Shown here piece by piece: positions 3,455 through 24,355 of a stretch of DNA of 38,147 bases. Origin of the DNA: Lewinella cohaerens DSM 23179 (lineage in GTDB: Bacteria > Bacteroidota > Bacteroidia > Chitinophagales > Saprospiraceae); the NCBI RefSeq assembly GCF_000379805.1, contig NZ_KB903537.1, forward strand, positions 116,291 through 154,437, read 5' to 3'. Each line of letters opens with the position of its first letter. The stretch's first letter is position 1. Below the pieces are notes generated by a model that was given only the letters and a program-made list of their open reading frames with translations, was not told the DNA's origin and searched no databases. The translations under genes were made by a program, and so were the position numbers.

Positions 3455-3552
3455 CTTAGGAACAGCACGAAAATAAAACACGATTTGGCTACGCCGCTAC
3501 TTTGTGGTCGCTTCGCGGCTACTTCGTGTTTTATTTTCTGCGCAATACTTAA
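3455..3552. repeat. Hairpin repeat, copy 1 (98 bp, MITE-like)
   Basis: This is the first of three related intergenic elements. It is bounded by CTTAG (3455-3459) and CTTAA (3548-3552), a possible degenerate 5-bp target duplication. The shared left end is GAACAGCACGAAAATAAAA and the shared right end TTTATTTTCTGCGCAATAC. A perfect 15-bp stem, GAAAATAAAACACGA, joins the two ends. The interior differs from copies 2 and 3 and is shorter and GC-richer (GGCTAC/CCGC motifs). It sits between the TonB receptor stop and the glucanase ATG. Confidence 0.85.
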
Positions 3553-16701: not shown

Positions 16702-16902
16702 TTAGTCATTAACTCGGAAAGAGATGTTGCAGATCACACCATAGGTGGAAATCTTGCCATCCTGAACGTGGGCTTTAATATCCTTTACATACACAGAATC
16801 TACATTACGAACAGTTTTGCTTACTTCTGTTACTGCTTTTTGGATAGCATCTTCTATGCCCTTTTCAGATGAGGCAATTACTTCAATTACTTTGACAATC
16901 AT
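16702..16902 (-). CDS. Dodecin family flavin-binding protein
   Basis: From ATG 16902 the protein has 66 residues, the usual dodecin length. The sequence MIVKVIEVIASSEKGIEDAI opens with the strand-helix pattern, and VDSVYVKDIKAHVQDGKI, YGVICNISFRVND gives the remaining strands. Dodecins form hollow 12-mers that bind flavins (riboflavin, FMN) and buffer their reactivity in the cytoplasm. The frame is open upstream to 17013, but those 37 codons run into the hairpin repeat at 16951-17080 and should be ignored. The repeat ends 48 bp before the ATG and may hold or displace the promoter. Confidence 0.9.
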   Translation of the reverse strand: MIVKVIEVIASSEKGIEDAIQKAVTEVSKTVRNVDSVYVKDIKAHVQDGKISTYGVICNISFRVND

Positions 16903-16950: not shown

Positions 16951-17080
16951 CTTAGGAACAGCACGAAAATAAAACGCGGCTTTGTTTCCCAAATAGTTAA
17001 CTAAACGATTCACTTCAAGTGTGTTAACTATTTGGGAAACTCGAAAAAAAATCGCGGTTTATTTTCTGCGCAATACCTAG
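16951..17080. repeat. Hairpin repeat, copy 2 (130 bp, MITE-like)
   Basis: Bounded by CTTAG (16951-16955) and CCTAG (17076-17080). It shares both ends with copies 1 and 3. The inner stem is a perfect 18-bp pair, GTTTCCCAAATAGTTAAC, with its reverse complement on the right arm. The outer stem pairs GAAAATAAA, one mismatch, then CGCG. A small CACTT/AAGTG stem caps the loop. It is the same length as copy 3 and in the same orientation. Confidence 0.88.
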
Positions 17081-17264
17081 TGACTTAATAACCTTGTACC
17101 TGCTGTCTATGTTCGAACGAGATGAGTATCTAAGGCAGCATTTCCCCCTTTCGTCGTATCTTTACCCTGAAGCTTGGTCAGAAATCGTATTTTCTGGTCC
17201 AACCTTCACAATATTATCCCAAGAACAGCAGTCTATAAAACGCTTAGAGTTTGTTTATGCTTCG
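17081..17264. other. 184-bp segment between two hairpin repeats, with a doubtful small ORF
   Basis: A plus-strand frame could start at TTG 17094 or ATG 17109 (MFERDEYLRQHFPLSSYLYP) and runs into copy 3, ending at 17306 with residues supplied by the repeat. I recognise no family. It may be a truncated gene, upstream DNA of the adhesin gene, or chance. No clear promoter was found in it. Confidence 0.4.
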
Positions 17265-17394
17265 CTAAGGAACAGCACGAAAATAAAAAGCGATTTTGTT
17301 TTCTAAATAGTTGAATAAGCGCTTCATTTCAAGCGTTTTAACTACTTGGAAAACTTGAAAAAAAATCGCAGTTTATTTTCTGCGCAATACTAAG
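17265..17394. repeat. Hairpin repeat, copy 3 (130 bp, MITE-like)
   Basis: Bounded by identical CTAAG at 17265-17269 and 17390-17394, consistent with a 5-bp target duplication. Ends are as in copies 1 and 2. The inner stem equivalent to copy 2 carries differences from it that keep pairing: C-G becomes T-A at stem position 5 and A-T at position 18, and two other positions become G-T type wobbles. It ends 31 bp before the adhesin ATG. Confidence 0.88.
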
Positions 17395-17425: not shown

Positions 17426-20400
17426 ATGCGCCAACCGCTTGTGCGCCTTTTGCTGCTTTCCATCTTCACCGTGATATTTCTATCGCGGGGCTTTGCCCAA
17501 AATTGTGGACAAAGAGATACAATCATTTTCACGGCCAACACGACAAGTTCCCTATCTCTCGATATAAGTGATTACTTCAACGACGACCTCAGCGATCCAA
17601 TGCAGGGTTTATGTGGTATTGAACTGGGGTTTGTCCATCAGTTTGTAGAAAATTTTGAGCTTTCACTTACTTCTCCCGGCGGCCAAACGGTTGGCCTTCT
17701 CGGGCCAAATAGCGATGACCCTTTCGCTTTCACCCCTGGTACGCAATGGCAGATCAACTTGGTCAACTGCGGCTCCGTTGCCCAACCCGATAGTGCTTTC
17801 GCCGATCAGTGGAACAACGATCAGGTCGAAAACTGGGTGCCCTTTGGTTTCTACAATGGCTCTTACTATCCCTATGGCGGTTGTCTCGAAGATTTCAACA
17901 CTGGCCCCGTCAATGGAACCTGGACGTTCAATATTACCAATAATCCCTCCAACAATCCCGGTGCAATCACCTACCTCCGGCTCATTTTTTGCGATAGCCG
18001 AGGCGTAGAATGCTGCTTTGCCCAAGCGGGTGAGTGGCAGAACGAAGATATCCTGGCTTGTGTGGGTGCCGACACCTTACAAATTACACCAGACATCAAC
18101 TTTTCCCTTGGCGAAGCGGATACGCTGGAATACAGTTACGCCTATCTTATTGGTCTCAACGGCATATACCAGCAGCTTGATTCTGTACTCGACCTGCGAG
18201 CAGCCGCCGCTGGGGAATATGATATTTGTGGCTTCTCGTACCGCAGCAGTCAACTAGATAGCCTTCCACTCCCTGACGGAATGCTTACCCTCGATAGTAT
18301 CCGTACCAACCTCGAAGGGCTGGAACCCTGGCTATGTGGTCTGCTTACGCCCGAGTGCCTCCATGTTTCTATCGTTGCCCCACCCGATACTACCCGGCTC
18401 AATGAGCGCATTTGTAGAGGAGACAGTATCGTCGTTGGGGCGCAAAGCTTCCTTGATGGTGGTTTTTATACTGTAGACCTTGAAAATTATGCAGGCTGTG
18501 ACAGCATCGTTACACTTGACCTTTTTGTACAAGAGGTGCAGTTTACCAGCATAGATACGACCCTCTGCCCTGGAGATACCGTATTCGTGGGCAATGAATT
18601 TTATTTCGAAACCGGCGTTTACAGTGATACACTAGCCAGCGTGGAACTGGGTTGCGACAGCATTGTCAACCTCAACCTGATCGTATTGGCAGAGCAGGTC
18701 ACACCGATTGCGCCTGTTATTTGTGTTGGTGAAAACTTTGCGGTGGGGGATAGTTTATTGACAACCACAGGCAACTACCAAATTTTACTAACCTCCGTAG
18801 CCGGTTGCGATAGTTTGGTAATCGTAGACTTATTGGTACTTGAACCGGAGGCCGCCATCACTGGCCCGCCAGAAATAGATTGTGCTCAACCGGAAGTCAC
18901 TTTGAGTAGTAGCGGATCGTCTCCTGCGGGGGAACTCAGTTTTCAATGGTTCGCCATTGATGAAACAATATTAGGCAACAGCCCCACTCTACTAGTCGAT
19001 GCTGAAGGCGCCTATATTTTAGAAATAAGTCAGGAAGTTTCAGGAACCATCTGTACTGCCCGTGACACCTTTAGCTTAAGCGCAAATTTTGATACGCCTA
19101 TCGCCGATGCCGGACCAGCAACCAGCGTCACCTGCGCCCAACCAAGTGTACAAATTGGAGGGCCAACGACCAGTATGGGTAATGCCTACACTTACCAGTG
19201 GCAAACCACCAACGGCAGCATTAGTGGCCCACTAGACAGTCTATTTACTACCGTCAACAGTGCAGGGGATTACCAACTTATCGTCCAGGACACTATTAGT
19301 TTCTGTACCGACACCAGTATGGTTAACGTCATGGCCGATCAACTTCCACCAGATGTTTTTACAGGACCGGGGTTCACGCTCAACTGTCTCATTCTTGCAG
19401 ATACCCTGGATGGTTCCGCCTCTTTAGGCCAAGGGATTTCGGCCAGCTGGTCTGGGCCTTGCATCACAGAAACTCCTGGCCCTGGCCTGGCCATTATTGA
19501 TTGCCCGGGGTGGTACTACCTGGAAGTAATTAATGCCAATAATGGCTGTAGTGCGCTAGATTCTTTATTGATTGAAGAAGACCTAACACCAGCATTTGCC
19601 GTGATTGCTCCCGCCGATACGCTCACTTGCGCGGAGGAGACCGTAGTATTGGATGGTACGCTATCGACCCCTAACGGGATCATTGATTTTGACTGGACAG
19701 GCCCTTCCGGGCAAAACGCCAATACCTCCACATTTCCTGTGACCGAAGCAGGCAATTATGAATTAATCATCATTCGTCAGGATAATTTTTGCCGGGATAC
19801 ATCTACCGTTTTCGTAGAACAAGATACCCTAGCACCGACTGCCGACGCTGGGCCTGACACTACGTTGAATTGCTATTCAGCGATGTTTCTTTTGCAAGGT
19901 TCCACCACCTCAACCGGGCCTTTTTACAGTTATCAGTGGTACAGTAGTGGCACGCCCATCCCCAATGCCACCAACGACAGCTTACTGATTACAGAAGCTG
20001 GCACCTATTCCCTCGAAGTTACTGACATCCGTAATGGTTGTACATCCCTTGACACCGCTGAAGTCGACGAAGATTTTATTACCCCAGAAGATGTCATCGC
20101 AGGGCCAGGCCAACTGTTGACTTGTGGTGGCGACATTGTTCAACTCCAACCAGACAGCACCATTTATTCCAGGCCCGTCACTTGGGAATGGACCGCCGAC
20201 TGTATCACCCCACAATCGGACAATTGGGCCATTTTTACCGATTGCCCCGGACTTTATACCCTTACGGTAACCAACATTGACAATGGATGTGTTGGGAGTG
20301 ATACCACCAGGGTTAATCTAGCTCCTAATTTCAGCATCTCCATTTTGCCAGACACTGCTTACCTCTCTTGTGAAACAGGGTCGGTAGTTTTGGACAACAG

Positions 20401-23400
20401 TGGTAGCATTGGCAGTGTATTTCAATGGTTTTTAGACGACGTAGCCATTAGTTTGCCTAATAATCAACCTAGTGTTCAAGAAGCAGGTATTTATTCATTG
20501 GTCACTAGCGACATTAACCAATCCTGTTCTGATACAGCTTTCGTAGAAGTATTGATAGACTGTACTCCCGTGGCGATTATTGATCCCGCTGAAGTGCTTA
20601 CTTGCGCTCAGCAGTCCATCTTTTTAGATGGGTCAAATAGCCAAGTTATCGGCCCGCAGACTTATGCCTGGACGGGGCCATCAGCGGGGTGCCTACTATC
20701 TCCTGCTGATTCGCCAACCATTGAGGTGGTTTGCCCTGGGGAATATCAACTGATTGTTGAGCACAGTATCTTCAATTTACGAGATACCACAACAATAACG
20801 GTCTTAATCGACACCGTCGCGCCCATCGTCGAAGCTGGCCCCAACCAACAAATAACGTGTAACAACACCCTCGCTGACTTACAGGGTTCTGTGATGGGTA
20901 ACATCAATGATTATACCTTTGCCTGGACCACTTTTTTCGAGCCAGATGACACCCTTACTCAGAACATCAACTATACCACCAATGCTGCCGGTACTTATGT
21001 GTTCATGGCGCAGGATATAGACAATGGTTGTATTCGTACAGATGTCGTACAGGTTACGCTAAATGACAGCCCGCCAACGATTGCGTTTGGTAGCTCCGTG
21101 TTCCCCTGCCAAGCGGACACTTTCCGTTTACAAGCTTTTGTCAATCCGCCCGCAGGAGATTACACCTACACCTGGAATGGCTTGGGTATAGAACAAGATG
21201 CTGATAGTCTGGCGGTTTTGATCAATCAGCCTGGTGACTATACTTTTTCTGTCATCAATAATCAGACGGGTTGTTCAGACAATGACCTTGTTACAGTTAC
21301 AGAGCAAACCTGCGTCCCCTGTCTTGATTTAGCTCCCGTAGATACCCTTGACTGTATCACCTCCATCGTTAATCTTGAAGTAGAATTTTGCCGCGAATGT
21401 GAAGGTTGTGTTCTTCAGTGGTCAGATGAAAACGGTGATATAGCAGGCGAAGACAGCTTATTCTTAACGGTCAACCTACCCGGTAATTACACCCTCACAG
21501 CAACCGATACGCTCGGATTCAGCACCATCGTTACCGCTACCGTCCTGCAATTAACGAATACGCCACTCGTTGATCTTGGGCCAGATCGAATGATCACTTG
21601 TGACAGTACCAATATTCTTTTGCAGAACTTATCCAACAATGAAAATTTTGACTACAGTTATCGCTGGGAAGAAACGACTTTGGGTAACCTGCCTGAAACA
21701 TCTCCCACGCTAACAGTCACTAGTCCCGGAGAATACGTATTGGAGTTAACAAACCTGCTCACTGGCTGTAGCCAAACAGATACCGTTTTAGTAACAGAAA
21801 ACCTGGTCTTACCGGTGGCCGAAGCTGGACCAGACATGGACCTCACCTGCCAAGATGATGTAATACCCCTTGATGGTACTGGCTCTACCCTCAGTGGCGT
21901 AAGCTATCAATGGACGGCCCCAAATACTACGTGTATTTCTGGTGAAGACAACACCACGCCCTTGGTCACCTGTCCCGGATTGTATACCCTGGAGGTAACC
22001 AGCCTGCTCAACGGCTGTTCCGCTACCGACACGGTGCGCGTAAGACTTGATGAAGAAGTCCCCGTACTAACCAGCTTCCCGGATACCGTGCTTACCTGCA
22101 CACAGAGCAGCGTTACCCTGACTGCCTCACCACCAACGACCGGGAGCTTTAGTACCCGCTGGTGCCCCCTTGATGAATTTGGCGATGAAGTTACTATCAT
22201 GTGTACTCAAAACACGATAGACTTTGTAGTGACGACGCCCGGTCAATACCAATACACCGCAGAGAATGATGTTACGGGTTGTAGCAATAGCTTCGTCGTC
22301 ACCGTAGGTATTGACACCCTTCCTCCTGTTATTGATGTGGGGGTAGAAGACACCCTTTATTGCACGCTAAACAGCCTCCAACTAGCAGGTACAGCTCCTA
22401 GTGGTGCGAACTATTTATGGAGCAATCCGGAGATGGCACAAATAGACAACCCTACCTCGTTACAACCAACAGTTTATGCAACCGGCTGGTATTTTCTCGA
22501 CGTACAATCACAAGCCAATGGTTGCGTTGCCCGTGATAGTGTTTTCATCGCCGAAGACGCCAACCAACCGGTACTTACAGCTGGCAATGACACCCTCATT
22601 AACTGTTTCCAACCAGAGGTCCGATTGTCGGCAACAGGATCAACTTTTAATGGTGAAAGTAGCTGGATTTGGAGTACACCTGTGGGTAATTTGCTTGAAG
22701 ATGAGGATACCCCTACCCCACTCATAGCTGCTAGTGGTTGGTATTTCGTAACATTGACGGATACAGGTAATGGTTGCTTTGTCACGGACAGTTTATTGGT
22801 TGATGAAGATTTCACTACGCCCCAAGCGGTCATCGAAAACCTTGGGAACTTACAACTCAGTTGTGCACAAGACACCTTGTTACTGGATGGCACCAATTCC
22901 GTAAGCAACACAAGCAACGGGCTGTTTTACTCCTGGCAGACTGCCCCTGCTGGTAATTTATTCCCCGACCTTGCTGCCCCACAGGTGTTTACCGATCGTC
23001 CTGGTAATTATGCGCTCATTGTTACAGATAGTGGCAATGGCTGTACAGATACGCTAGACTTTAATGTAAGCAGTGATTTCACCCTTCCATTATTGACTTT
23101 AGCACCAGCTGATACGATCACTTGTAGTAATTCTAATAGTACTTTAAGTACCTCTACTCCTACAGTTCCTGATGGTTTTCAGTTCTTATGGACCAATGAA
23201 AGCGGAGAAACAATAAGCACCACCTCCACCGCTGAAGCAACAGCTAGTGGCTGGTATACCCTGGTATTAACAGCTGACGAAAATGGATGTAGCAGCCTCC
23301 CTGATTCTGTCTTCGTTAACAGCAATTTCACCCTACCTGAAGTAGAGGTCAATACCGATGGTGATATTGATTGCGACCAAAATTTGATTCATTTAAGCGG

Positions 23401-24355
23401 TACTGGCTCTTCCCAAGGGGCCAATTACGGTTACCAATGGTCTAGCACCGATGGCGTGCTACTTGGAGATGGTACCAACCTCCTGGACTCGACAATAGTA
23501 GCAGGAACCTATACCTTAATGGTAACCAATATTTCTACGGGCTGTACCGCGTCTGATAGTATCGAAATAGTGCTACAAGGTGCCCCTATTGATAGCCTGG
23601 ACATAGAAATTGTATCGCCGCTTTGTGTGGGAGAACTTTCCGGCAGTATTAGCCTCAACGCTGTCTTCGGAGGTACCCCTCCTTATCTTTATCAAATAAA
23701 CAACCAGGGATTCAGCAGCTTATCTTTCTTTGAAGACCTCCCTCCCGGCGCCTATCAGCTACAAGTTTTGGATAGCCAGGGTTGTGATTGGGATGAAATG
23801 GCCACCTTGGAGGTTCCCCTCCCTCTAGGTGTAGAACTGGGGCCTGATCAAGAGGTATTGCTAGGCGACAGTCTTCAACTTGAACCTGAATTAACTCGCC
23901 CTATTATTGATTGGAAGTGGAATGCTCCGGGCTTACTTCAAGAAGATGCCCCTTTCCTGCCATTGATCACGCCGCAAGAAACTCAATATATTCTTCTGAC
24001 CGTCACTGATGAAAACGGTTGTACCGCTAGTGATACAATGCGTGTTTTTGTCAATAACCGTACTAGGGTTTTCATTCCTACGATCTTCTCTCCGAATGGA
24101 GATGACAACAACGAACTGTTTACTATTTACGCTGGTGATGAAGTAGTAGAAATCGAAAGCCTGCGCATCTTTAGCCGATGGGGAAATATGGTCTTTGAGA
24201 GAGACAACTTCCCTCCTAATGACGCTACGCTAGGTTGGGATGGTACCCTATGGGGTGAGCCACTCAACCCAGCCGTTTTTGTCTATTACGCCCAAGTCCG
24301 CTACACCGATGGCAGTACGGAACTGATCACAGGCGATGTGGTACTGATGAAATAG
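17426..24355 (+). CDS. Giant multi-repeat surface protein with P-domain-like N-terminus and T9SS type B signal
   Basis: This 2309-residue protein starts at ATG 17426 with a signal peptide ending at about FAQ (residue 25). Residues 26-195 resemble a proprotein-convertase P domain (FELSLTSPGGQTVGLLGP, GPVNGTWTFNITNN). Three short repeats follow (about 320-475), each with a GCDSIV-type end. About 19 tandem Ig/PKD-like domains of roughly 80-85 residues occupy about 480-2060; each opens with a pattern like AGPDTTLNC and closes with GxYxLxVTD plus NGC. Then come a SprB-like domain (about 2060-2135) and one more PKD-like domain. The last 95 residues (VFIPTIFSPNGDDNNELFTI, RWGNMVFE, GDVVLMK) are the gliding-motility-associated type B T9SS sorting domain. 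It is probably a surface adhesin or gliding-related filament. There is no recognised enzyme domain. It is monocistronic, and copy 3 of the hairpin repeat lies just upstream. Confidence 0.92.
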   Translation: MRQPLVRLLLLSIFTVIFLSRGFAQNCGQRDTIIFTANTTSSLSLDISDYFNDDLSDPMQGLCGIELGFVHQFVENFELSLTSPGGQTVGLLGPNSDDPFAFTPGTQWQINLVNCGSVAQPDSAFADQWNNDQVENWVPFGFYNGSYYPYGGCLEDFNTGPVNGTWTFNITNNPSNNPGAITYLRLIFCDSRGVECCFAQAGEWQNEDILACVGADTLQITPDINFSLGEADTLEYSYAYLIGLNGIYQQLDSVLDLRAAAAGEYDICGFSYRSSQLDSLPLPDGMLTLDSIRTNLEGLEPWLCGLLTPECLHVSIVAPPDTTRLNERICRGDSIVVGAQSFLDGGFYTVDLENYAGCDSIVTLDLFVQEVQFTSIDTTLCPGDTVFVGNEFYFETGVYSDTLASVELGCDSIVNLNLIVLAEQVTPIAPVICVGENFAVGDSLLTTTGNYQILLTSVAGCDSLVIVDLLVLEPEAAITGPPEIDCAQPEVTLSSSGSSPAGELSFQWFAIDETILGNSPTLLVDAEGAYILEISQEVSGTICTARDTFSLSANFDTPIADAGPATSVTCAQPSVQIGGPTTSMGNAYTYQWQTTNGSISGPLDSLFTTVNSAGDYQLIVQDTISFCTDTSMVNVMADQLPPDVFTGPGFTLNCLILADTLDGSASLGQGISASWSGPCITETPGPGLAIIDCPGWYYLEVINANNGCSALDSLLIEEDLTPAFAVIAPADTLTCAEETVVLDGTLSTPNGIIDFDWTGPSGQNANTSTFPVTEAGNYELIIIRQDNFCRDTSTVFVEQDTLAPTADAGPDTTLNCYSAMFLLQGSTTSTGPFYSYQWYSSGTPIPNATNDSLLITEAGTYSLEVTDIRNGCTSLDTAEVDEDFITPEDVIAGPGQLLTCGGDIVQLQPDSTIYSRPVTWEWTADCITPQSDNWAIFTDCPGLYTLTVTNIDNGCVGSDTTRVNLAPNFSISILPDTAYLSCETGSVVLDNSGSIGSVFQWFLDDVAISLPNNQPSVQEAGIYSLVTSDINQSCSDTAFVEVLIDCTPVAIIDPAEVLTCAQQSIFLDGSNSQVIGPQTYAWTGPSAGCLLSPADSPTIEVVCPGEYQLIVEHSIFNLRDTTTITVLIDTVAPIVEAGPNQQITCNNTLADLQGSVMGNINDYTFAWTTFFEPDDTLTQNINYTTNAAGTYVFMAQDIDNGCIRTDVVQVTLNDSPPTIAFGSSVFPCQADTFRLQAFVNPPAGDYTYTWNGLGIEQDADSLAVLINQPGDYTFSVINNQTGCSDNDLVTVTEQTCVPCLDLAPVDTLDCITSIVNLEVEFCRECEGCVLQWSDENGDIAGEDSLFLTVNLPGNYTLTATDTLGFSTIVTATVLQLTNTPLVDLGPDRMITCDSTNILLQNLSNNENFDYSYRWEETTLGNLPETSPTLTVTSPGEYVLELTNLLTGCSQTDTVLVTENLVLPVAEAGPDMDLTCQDDVIPLDGTGSTLSGVSYQWTAPNTTCISGEDNTTPLVTCPGLYTLEVTSLLNGCSATDTVRVRLDEEVPVLTSFPDTVLTCTQSSVTLTASPPTTGSFSTRWCPLDEFGDEVTIMCTQNTIDFVVTTPGQYQYTAENDVTGCSNSFVVTVGIDTLPPVIDVGVEDTLYCTLNSLQLAGTAPSGANYLWSNPEMAQIDNPTSLQPTVYATGWYFLDVQSQANGCVARDSVFIAEDANQPVLTAGNDTLINCFQPEVRLSATGSTFNGESSWIWSTPVGNLLEDEDTPTPLIAASGWYFVTLTDTGNGCFVTDSLLVDEDFTTPQAVIENLGNLQLSCAQDTLLLDGTNSVSNTSNGLFYSWQTAPAGNLFPDLAAPQVFTDRPGNYALIVTDSGNGCTDTLDFNVSSDFTLPLLTLAPADTITCSNSNSTLSTSTPTVPDGFQFLWTNESGETISTTSTAEATASGWYTLVLTADENGCSSLPDSVFVNSNFTLPEVEVNTDGDIDCDQNLIHLSGTGSSQGANYGYQWSSTDGVLLGDGTNLLDSTIVAGTYTLMVTNISTGCTASDSIEIVLQGAPIDSLDIEIVSPLCVGELSGSISLNAVFGGTPPYLYQINNQGFSSLSFFEDLPPGAYQLQVLDSQGCDWDEMATLEVPLPLGVELGPDQEVLLGDSLQLEPELTRPIIDWKWNAPGLLQEDAPFLPLITPQETQYILLTVTDENGCTASDTMRVFVNNRTRVFIPTIFSPNGDDNNELFTIYAGDEVVEIESLRIFSRWGNMVFERDNFPPNDATLGWDGTLWGEPLNPAVFVYYAQVRYTDGSTELITGDVVLMK

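What the first reader, a model, noticed from the sequence alone, without database searches (positions are those of the whole stretch)
16951..17394. Hairpin repeat family with compensatory stem changes
Copies 2 and 3 (130 bp each) share both ends and form long hairpins. At stem positions 5 and 18 copy 2 has C-G pairs where copy 3 has T-A and A-T pairs, and two further copy 3 positions become G-T wobbles while one becomes an A-C mismatch. Paired changes suggest the folded form, in RNA or single-stranded DNA, has been selected. Copy 3 has identical CTAAG on both sides and the other two have similar CTNAG-like flanks, so they look like inserted MITE- or REP-like elements with a CTNAG-type target. 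I know of no named family that matches.
Basis: partly seen in the sequence, partly recalled or inferred. Interest (0 to 1): 0.72.

Follow-up and report, generated by a model that had tools for sequence, protein, structure and literature searches.

The report
Mobile hairpin repeats between bacterial genes
A short, non-coding piece of DNA has copied itself more than a hundred times into the gaps between genes of this bacterium and its relatives, and copies that spread seem to keep one of their two strands able to fold into the same long hairpin, which an ordinary jumping DNA should not need.

Summary
The window holds three copies of a 122-nt element (one shortened); the genome has 157 left-end matches. 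In 67 of 135 copies both flanks carry the same trinucleotide, mostly TAA or TTA (25 expected), so insertion duplicates TNA inside C|TNA|G. Empty sites in a sister species support insertion. No gene was seen inside. The stem covaries in 27 of 39 pairs within the genus. Three other genera carry versions with another stem sequence but the same apical loop and 3' bulge, and in 12 of 28 copies, read by eye, a flanking duplication. Changes placed on internal branches of the copies' tree keep the plus strand paired (18.9 to G.T, 2.0 to A.C), while mismatch types private to one copy are balanced (11 and 12); several controls weaken this. Best reading: a new MITE-class family moved in trans by an unseen IS5-type transposase, with a probable strand-specific folding requirement that standard MITE models do not explain. 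IS5-type elements with TNA duplications exist in three carrier genomes, but with other ends.

The parts
3459..3548 (+). Shortened copy (90 nt with terminal G and C): conserved ends and outer stem; core replaced by GGCTACGCCGC...-type repeat units
   Evidence: TTA on both sides (3456-3458, 3549-3551)
16955..17076 (+). Copy 2, full-length element (122 nt)
   Evidence: fold z -7.57
16952..16954 (.). Left flank trinucleotide TTA of copy 2 (right flank 17077-17079 is CTA, so the pair is not identical)
17269..17390 (+). Copy 3, full-length element (122 nt)
   Evidence: fold z -7.70; absent from the matching place in sister genome G002, but not as a clean empty site
17266..17268 (.). Target duplication TAA, left of copy 3
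17391..17393 (.). Target duplication TAA, right of copy 3
16984..17001 (+). Inner stem, 5' arm of copy 2 (pairs with 17023-17040)
17023..17040 (+). Inner stem, 3' arm of copy 2
16702..16902 (-). Neighbouring dodecin gene, divergent from the copy pair
   Evidence: Pfam Dodecin E 1.4e-24
17426..24355 (+). Neighbouring 2309-aa protein with PKD, SprB-repeat and CHU_C type IX secretion domains; starts after a 35-nt gap from copy 3

Best explanation
A non-autonomous mobile element of the MITE class. Shown: 122 nt in its commonest form, no gene, inserted between genes at C|TNA|G with duplication of TNA. Inferred: moved in trans by an IS5-type DDE transposase that was not identified. Shown: the plus strand folds into one long hairpin with a 6-7-nt bulge on its 3' arm and a conserved apical loop (AAACGRTTCAYTTNAAGYGT-like) in four genera. 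Supported but not settled: lineages of copies that went on to multiply kept this fold on the plus strand (G.T tolerated, A.C removed). Inferred: some step of propagation needs a folded single strand, RNA or DNA, probably bound through loop and bulge. Some copies then decay, several by loss of the hairpin: 19 of 107 paired copies are 35-54 nt (one of these is a false pairing), and 18-nt remnants occur between duplicated trinucleotides.
For: Copy number. Target duplication: one register agrees; 67 of 135 copies identical (51 of 107 own, 16 of 28 congeners) against 25.3+-3.7 shuffled, maximum 40 in 2000 shuffles. Near-identical copies (L042/L043, L012/L087) carry different central bases, each matched on both sides, so the duplication comes from the target. 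Empty sites in G002. Covariation: 27 of 39 pairs, 0 of 500 shuffles; in 29 matches from other genera 31 of 39 (alignment fitted to the model). Four single copies from three other genera fold with z -7.8 to -8.3. Strand: internal branches 18.9 changes to G.T against 2.0 to A.C on 34 stem pairs chosen without wobbles, p 2e-4; p 0.011 to 0.0001 on four other trees; mismatch types in a single copy 11 G.T and 12 A.C, in four or more copies 7 and 1; mutation spectrum balanced at unpaired sites; full-length own copies fold better on the plus strand in 56 of 65. Orientation: 50 with and 22 against tandem neighbours, p 0.0013. IS5-type elements with TNA duplications in G002, G021 and G063.
Against: No transposase with matching ends: PF01609 and PF13359 in four genomes, PF13340 in seven; apart from Y1 in the own genome, other transposase families were not searched. 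Terminal inverted repeats are poor (GGAACAGCAC-GAAAATAAA against GTATTGCGCAGAAAATAAA). Strand result: mismatch types shared by 2-3 copies are 6 G.T and 8 A.C, so the excess rests on widely shared types; on all 48 wobble-free pairs, loop-side ones included, it is 22.9 against 12.4 internal and 48 against 36 terminal; on 25 pairs common to both strands' consensus folds 11.5 against 3.2 and 28 against 17.6; without the two G.T-richest pairs 11.4 against 1.5, p 0.02. The internal/terminal contrast is only suggestive (Fisher 0.013 to 0.43). Short own copies fold better on the minus strand (17 of 21). One shared old copy (L094/L125) keeps its fold in both species, so selection at the site or conversion between copies is possible.
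Confidence: 0.57

Rival explanations
1. Ordinary fold-back MITE. The arms stay complementary through DNA-level correction between arms (template switching in quasi-palindromes) or conversion between copies; folding has no function.
For: MITE anatomy and TNA duplication; hairpin deletions occur; one G001 copy appears to have its inner hairpin inverted; mismatch types shared by 2-3 copies show no strand excess.
Against: Such correction is strand-neutral and should not give 18.9 against 2.0 on internal branches or 7 against 1 among widely shared mismatch types, nor keep the same apical loop and asymmetric bulge across genera while the stem between them is rewritten.
Confidence: 0.2
2. Host-level RNA function or tolerance: copies sit in transcripts, and the folded plus-strand RNA (mRNA processing, stability or insulation, as reported for ERIC in Yersinia) decides which insertions survive; mobility itself needs no fold.
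For: 2 of 107 copies in called ORFs and 50:22 co-directional with tandem neighbours; ERIC's orientation-dependent mRNA effect (PMC2229807, passages); L094/L125 keep the fold in both species.
Against: Mismatch types private to one copy are strand-neutral; the resident orthologue L116 has lost much of its fold (-27.5 against -46.6 kcal/mol in L167); congeners show only 11:7 for orientation.
Confidence: 0.25
3. REP/REPIN-type element moved as single-stranded DNA by a Y1 (HUH) transposase.
For: A strand-specific hairpin recognised next to its foot is how IS200/IS605 enzymes work (recalled); four Y1 genes in the genome.
Against: No element ends near any of the four Y1 genes; those enzymes leave no target duplication (recalled), whereas here the duplicated base comes from the target.
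Confidence: 0.06

Closest known systems
ERIC / NEMIS (Correia) / YPAL bacterial MITEs
   Same: Same size class (~100-170 bp), usually intergenic, one long hairpin, target duplications; ERIC acts on mRNA in an orientation-dependent way (PMC2229807 and PMC10969869, passages seen).
   Different: Other hosts and TNA duplication; ERIC and NEMIS have TA at their ends (PMC2229807 table), this element does not. A strand-specific fold signal and replacement of the stem between genera were measured here.
IS5 family (IS1031/ISL2 groups, names recalled) and eukaryotic PHIS transposons (NuwaII, C|TNA|G)
   Same: NuwaII has exactly C|TNA|G (PMC4482050, passages). Three IS5-type elements of carrier genomes show TTA or TAA duplications.
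   Different: Their terminal repeats (GAGCCTGTTT..., GAAGCCGTTTT..., GATCATGTTT...) do not match the element's ends. The same paper gives ANT, not TNA, for the IS5 elements it compared.
REP / REPIN with RAYT
   Same: Many short intergenic hairpins, clusters and tandem arrays.
   Different: Target duplication present, no linked Y1 gene, single 122-nt hairpin.

Membership tests
MITE | Short (<~0.5 kb), non-coding, many copies | tested here: met
   67 of 107 paired copies are 117-121 nt between GAACAG and CAATA; 157 left ends
MITE | Target site duplication | tested here: met
   67 of 135 identical trinucleotide flanks against 25 shuffled; empty sites
MITE | Terminal inverted repeats | tested here: inconclusive
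   Imperfect: 9-nt GAAAATAAA inverted block, weak outermost 10 nt
MITE | Ends shared with an autonomous element | tested here: inconclusive
   None found; searches limited to PF01609, PF13359, PF13340, Y1 and to part of the left-end matches
IS5 family derivative | TNA target duplication | tested here: met
IS5 family derivative | Terminal repeats matching an IS5-type element of the genome | tested here: not met
   Terminal repeats found in L293, L294 and L295 differ
REP/REPIN-RAYT | Linked RAYT (Y1) gene flanked by the repeat | tested here: not met
   Four Y1 loci of the own genome without ends
REP/REPIN-RAYT | No target duplication (recalled) | tested here: not met
   Duplication present
Known Rfam RNA family | Match at gathering score | tested here: not met
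   0 matches in the window; only sub-threshold matches to unrelated families

The most novel reading that the evidence does not exclude
The element moves through a folded single-stranded intermediate (RNA, or one DNA strand) recognised by its conserved apical loop and 3' bulge, and is then integrated with a 3-bp TNA duplication: a transposition route that joins strand-specific hairpin recognition with DDE-like target duplication, present in at least four genera of one bacterial family.
Probability: 0.2. Interest if true: 0.85.

Novelty: new variant of a known kind. Interest (0 to 1): 0.58.

Why it matters
MITE hairpins can be taken for by-products of fold-back DNA. Here the copies themselves may record a filter: mismatches private to one copy are strand-neutral, widely shared ones keep the plus strand foldable, and across genera the stem is rewritten while loop and bulge stay. 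That makes it testable whether a bacterial MITE needs a folded RNA or single DNA strand to spread, or whether hosts select which insertions survive through their RNA. The covariance model also gives a handle for finding the family and its missing enzyme.

Tried and rejected
Y1 transposases as partner: four loci of the own genome, no ends. DDE_Tnp_1: 32 matches in four genomes, 30 loci read; no pair of close end matches flanks a transposase (L190 holds a ~30-nt remnant of the element more than 1 kb from its transposase); terminal repeats of six multi-copy groups differ. DDE_Tnp_4: none in four genomes. DUF4096: 8 matches in seven genomes; terminal repeats with TNA duplications found for three (L293, L294, L295), with other ends; the own-genome copy has a stop inside. 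Further left ends: 20 loci fetched (18 own, 2 of G002), several of them ordinary copies; no autonomous element recognised; about ten other listed left ends were not fetched, and the ORFs listed for ten loci were not searched against families. A 5-bp CTNAG duplication: rejected, since positions -1/+5 do not agree. The 216-nt copy as an own subtype: rejected, it looks like a nested MITE of a 460-aa IS. Terminator as main role: not favoured, 10 of 101 placed copies are between convergent genes. Replication-strand bias in G002: 25 of 39 with an origin fitted from the GC skew of 66 loci, inconclusive. Plasmids, phages, viral contigs: no match. Exact left end in the genome collection: 8 records; three (two contigs of an uncultured Lewinella MAG, one of a Bacteroidetes MAG) are copies, one of them cut by a contig end; five have no right end within 300 nt and look like chance. 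Literature: six searches; in their listings I saw no paper on such an element in Lewinella or Saprospiraceae.

Rows dropped or imperfect: of 35 congener rows 28 were kept. Seven were dropped: four pairings with an internal CACAATA, a 71-nt and a 337-nt row, and one true 41-nt copy (L164, flanks not identical). One false pairing (L145, 293 nt) was kept by oversight. The own 107 include one false pairing (L109) and the nested L075 copy. Gene calls are greedy longest ORFs, not a trained caller. Flanks of the other genera were read by eye.

Full report
Observation. The two full copies are at 16955-17076 and 17269-17390, with a shortened third at 3459-3548. Both full copies fold with z of -7.57 and -7.70 against 200 dinucleotide shuffles, none as stable. 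The pair lies in the divergent gap between a dodecin gene and a 2309-aa SprB/PKD protein with a type IX secretion signal.

Family in the genome. The left end occurs 157 times and the right end 210 times with up to two mismatches, against 0 and 1 for the reversed patterns (100 places of each listed). From the loci fetched I extracted 107 paired copies: 67 are 117-121 nt between GAACAG and CAATA, 19 are 35-54 nt (mostly outer stem only), 13 are 140-142, the rest 68, 88, 116, 162-165, 184 and 216. The 140-165-nt ones carry CTTCGCGGCTACTTCGTGG-type inserts on one arm, or the complement on the other; L107 and L165 have both. Remnants as short as 18 nt (GGAACAGCACGAAAATAC) remain between trinucleotide copies (L211, L220, and L203 with one change). 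Tandem arrays exist (L013, L016, L039, L115).

Insertion. Comparing left and right flanks in registers of 2 to 9 bp, clear agreement above shuffling appears only at 5 bp, over positions -5 to -2 against +1 to +4 (z 3.6 to 6.5), and not at -1/+5. Among 135 copies (107 own, 28 congener rows) 67 have the same trinucleotide at -4 to -2 and +2 to +4, against 25.3+-3.7 by shuffling: TAA 37, TTA 17, others 13. In those 67 the outer bases behave as element (G at -1 in 60, C at +1 in 59) and as target preference (C at -5 in 37, G at +5 in 33), that is C|TNA|G. Near-identical copies have different central bases matched on both sides (L012, L042, L043; L087), so the duplication is made from the target. 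Of 47 candidate insertion sites, the joined flanks of 11 (plus a fragment of a twelfth) were searched in three congeners. Eight had a G002 match that I aligned: two read through without a gap and with one trinucleotide (L045, L030), three with small indels near the site (L026, L012, L005), one with many indels (L042), one not clean (window copy 3), one not alignable (L007). The trinucleotide itself has sometimes changed in G002 (TGA for TAA at L030). Five alignments to G001 or G003 show no element but are more diverged, and one of them covers the right flank only.

Distribution. With the left-end pattern, 17 of 60 genomes had a match, but only the genus exceeded control level (157, 39, 11 and 2). 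NCBI places Lewinella in Lewinellaceae, order Saprospirales; the search tool does not name its family. A covariance model from 77 copies found the family in 5 of 120 genomes of that family: own, one congener, and three other genera with at least 28, 6 and 4 matches; at most 30 candidates per genome were scored, with stricter filters. These have the same architecture, apical loop and bulge but different stem sequences; 12 of 28 copies, read by eye, have identical flanking trinucleotides. Four single copies from these genera fold with z -7.8 to -8.3.

Structure under selection. On the genus alignment 27 of 39 pairs show changes on both sides and 96.8% of cells pair, 0 of 500 shuffles as high on any measure; slid registers pair 36-57%. 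On the 29 matches from the other genera it is 31 of 39 and 95.3%, though that alignment was fitted to the model.

Which strand. G.T pairs fold on the plus strand only, A.C pairs (as G.T) on the minus strand only. Counting changes by parsimony for 34 stem pairs chosen without wobbles, internal branches have 18.9 changes from a Watson-Crick pair to G.T and 2.0 to A.C (p 2e-4), terminal branches 35.0 and 21.5. Trees from unpaired columns, from either half, or with another model give internal p of 0.011 to 0.0001. Without a tree, mismatch types seen in one copy are 11 G.T and 12 A.C, in two or three copies 6 and 8, in four or more 7 and 1. The mutation spectrum is balanced at unpaired sites (27.8 against 24.6 internal, 39.3 against 36.0 terminal). 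Full-length own copies fold better on the plus strand in 56 of 65, 138-190-nt ones in 13 of 17, congener full-length ones in 8 of 13. Against this: with all 48 wobble-free pairs the internal count is 22.9 against 12.4, with the 25 pairs common to both strands' folds 11.5 against 3.2, without the two G.T-richest pairs 11.4 against 1.5; the internal/terminal contrast is not always significant, and short own copies fold better on the minus strand in 17 of 21.

Gene context. With crude gene calls, 2 of 107 copies lie in ORFs (1). Of 101 placed copies 72 are between tandem genes, 50 with and 22 against their direction (p 0.0013), 19 divergent, 10 convergent; congeners give 11:7 (p 0.48). Two old shared insertions differ: L116 lost much of its fold relative to its orthologue L167, while L094 and L125 both keep it.

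Mobilising enzyme. TNA duplication points to IS5-type DDE enzymes (recalled for the IS1031 and ISL2 groups; PMC4482050, passages, gives ANT for the IS5 it compared and C|TNA|G for eukaryotic NuwaII). IS5-type elements with DUF4096 and DDE_Tnp_1 domains and TTA or TAA duplications exist in G002, G021 and G063, but with other terminal repeats; the own-genome copy has a stop inside. No transposase between these ends was recognised in what I read. The enzyme is inferred, not shown.

Verdict. A new family of MITE-class elements with strong, cross-genus structural covariation and a probable strand-specific folding constraint. Whether that constraint acts in mobility or in the host's RNA is open; mobility-linked folding is my best explanation, host RNA effects the main rival, a single-stranded intermediate the boldest reading. 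On checking I lowered confidence in the best explanation slightly (0.60 to 0.57), because the mismatch types shared by 2-3 copies and the 48-pair count had been left out.

Noticed in passing
L036 left flank; G002 many places (query 2870-2994): A second abundant repeat family (GACGTTGCGACAATATTCCCAAACCACTTAGTGCCGGGTATAG-like) with more than ten matching places in G002.
   Followed up: no
L143, L144, L148, L149, L151, L157, L165, L170 (G002 copies): A GC-rich palindrome (CCCGTCTGGCCAGCCGGACAGGCG-like) sits at the tip of the hairpin in these copies, as if another repeat targets the loop.
   Followed up: no
window 3459-3548; L022, L046, L077, L107, L165: CTTCGCGGCTACTTCGTGG-type units inserted near the bulge position on either arm; the inserts of the two arms are complementary.
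   Followed up: partly
L051 (own contig C21, around 82355): Y1 transposase gene with two copies of a GTAG-ended palindrome (GCTGGTCGGGGGACCAGCAGGATATATCCTTGTAG) in its locus: possibly a separate REP/RAYT system.
   Followed up: no
L075 1878-2093: Apparent nested insertion: a sequence with the terminal repeat of the 460-aa IS (AACATGAGTCATCCCGAATTTT) inside a copy of the element.
   Followed up: partly
L226 (uncultured Lewinella MAG): A copy whose inner hairpin seems to be in reverse orientation between normal outer stems.
   Followed up: no
L270 1251-1376, L291 1913-2038 (G021): A second, related-looking hairpin type with another loop and GGAGCG... ends, found weakly by the covariance model.
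   Followed up: no
L211, L220, L203: 18-nt remnants GGAACAGCAC(G/T)AAAATAC flanked by TNA-type trinucleotides, probably hairpin deletions between AATA repeats.
   Followed up: partly
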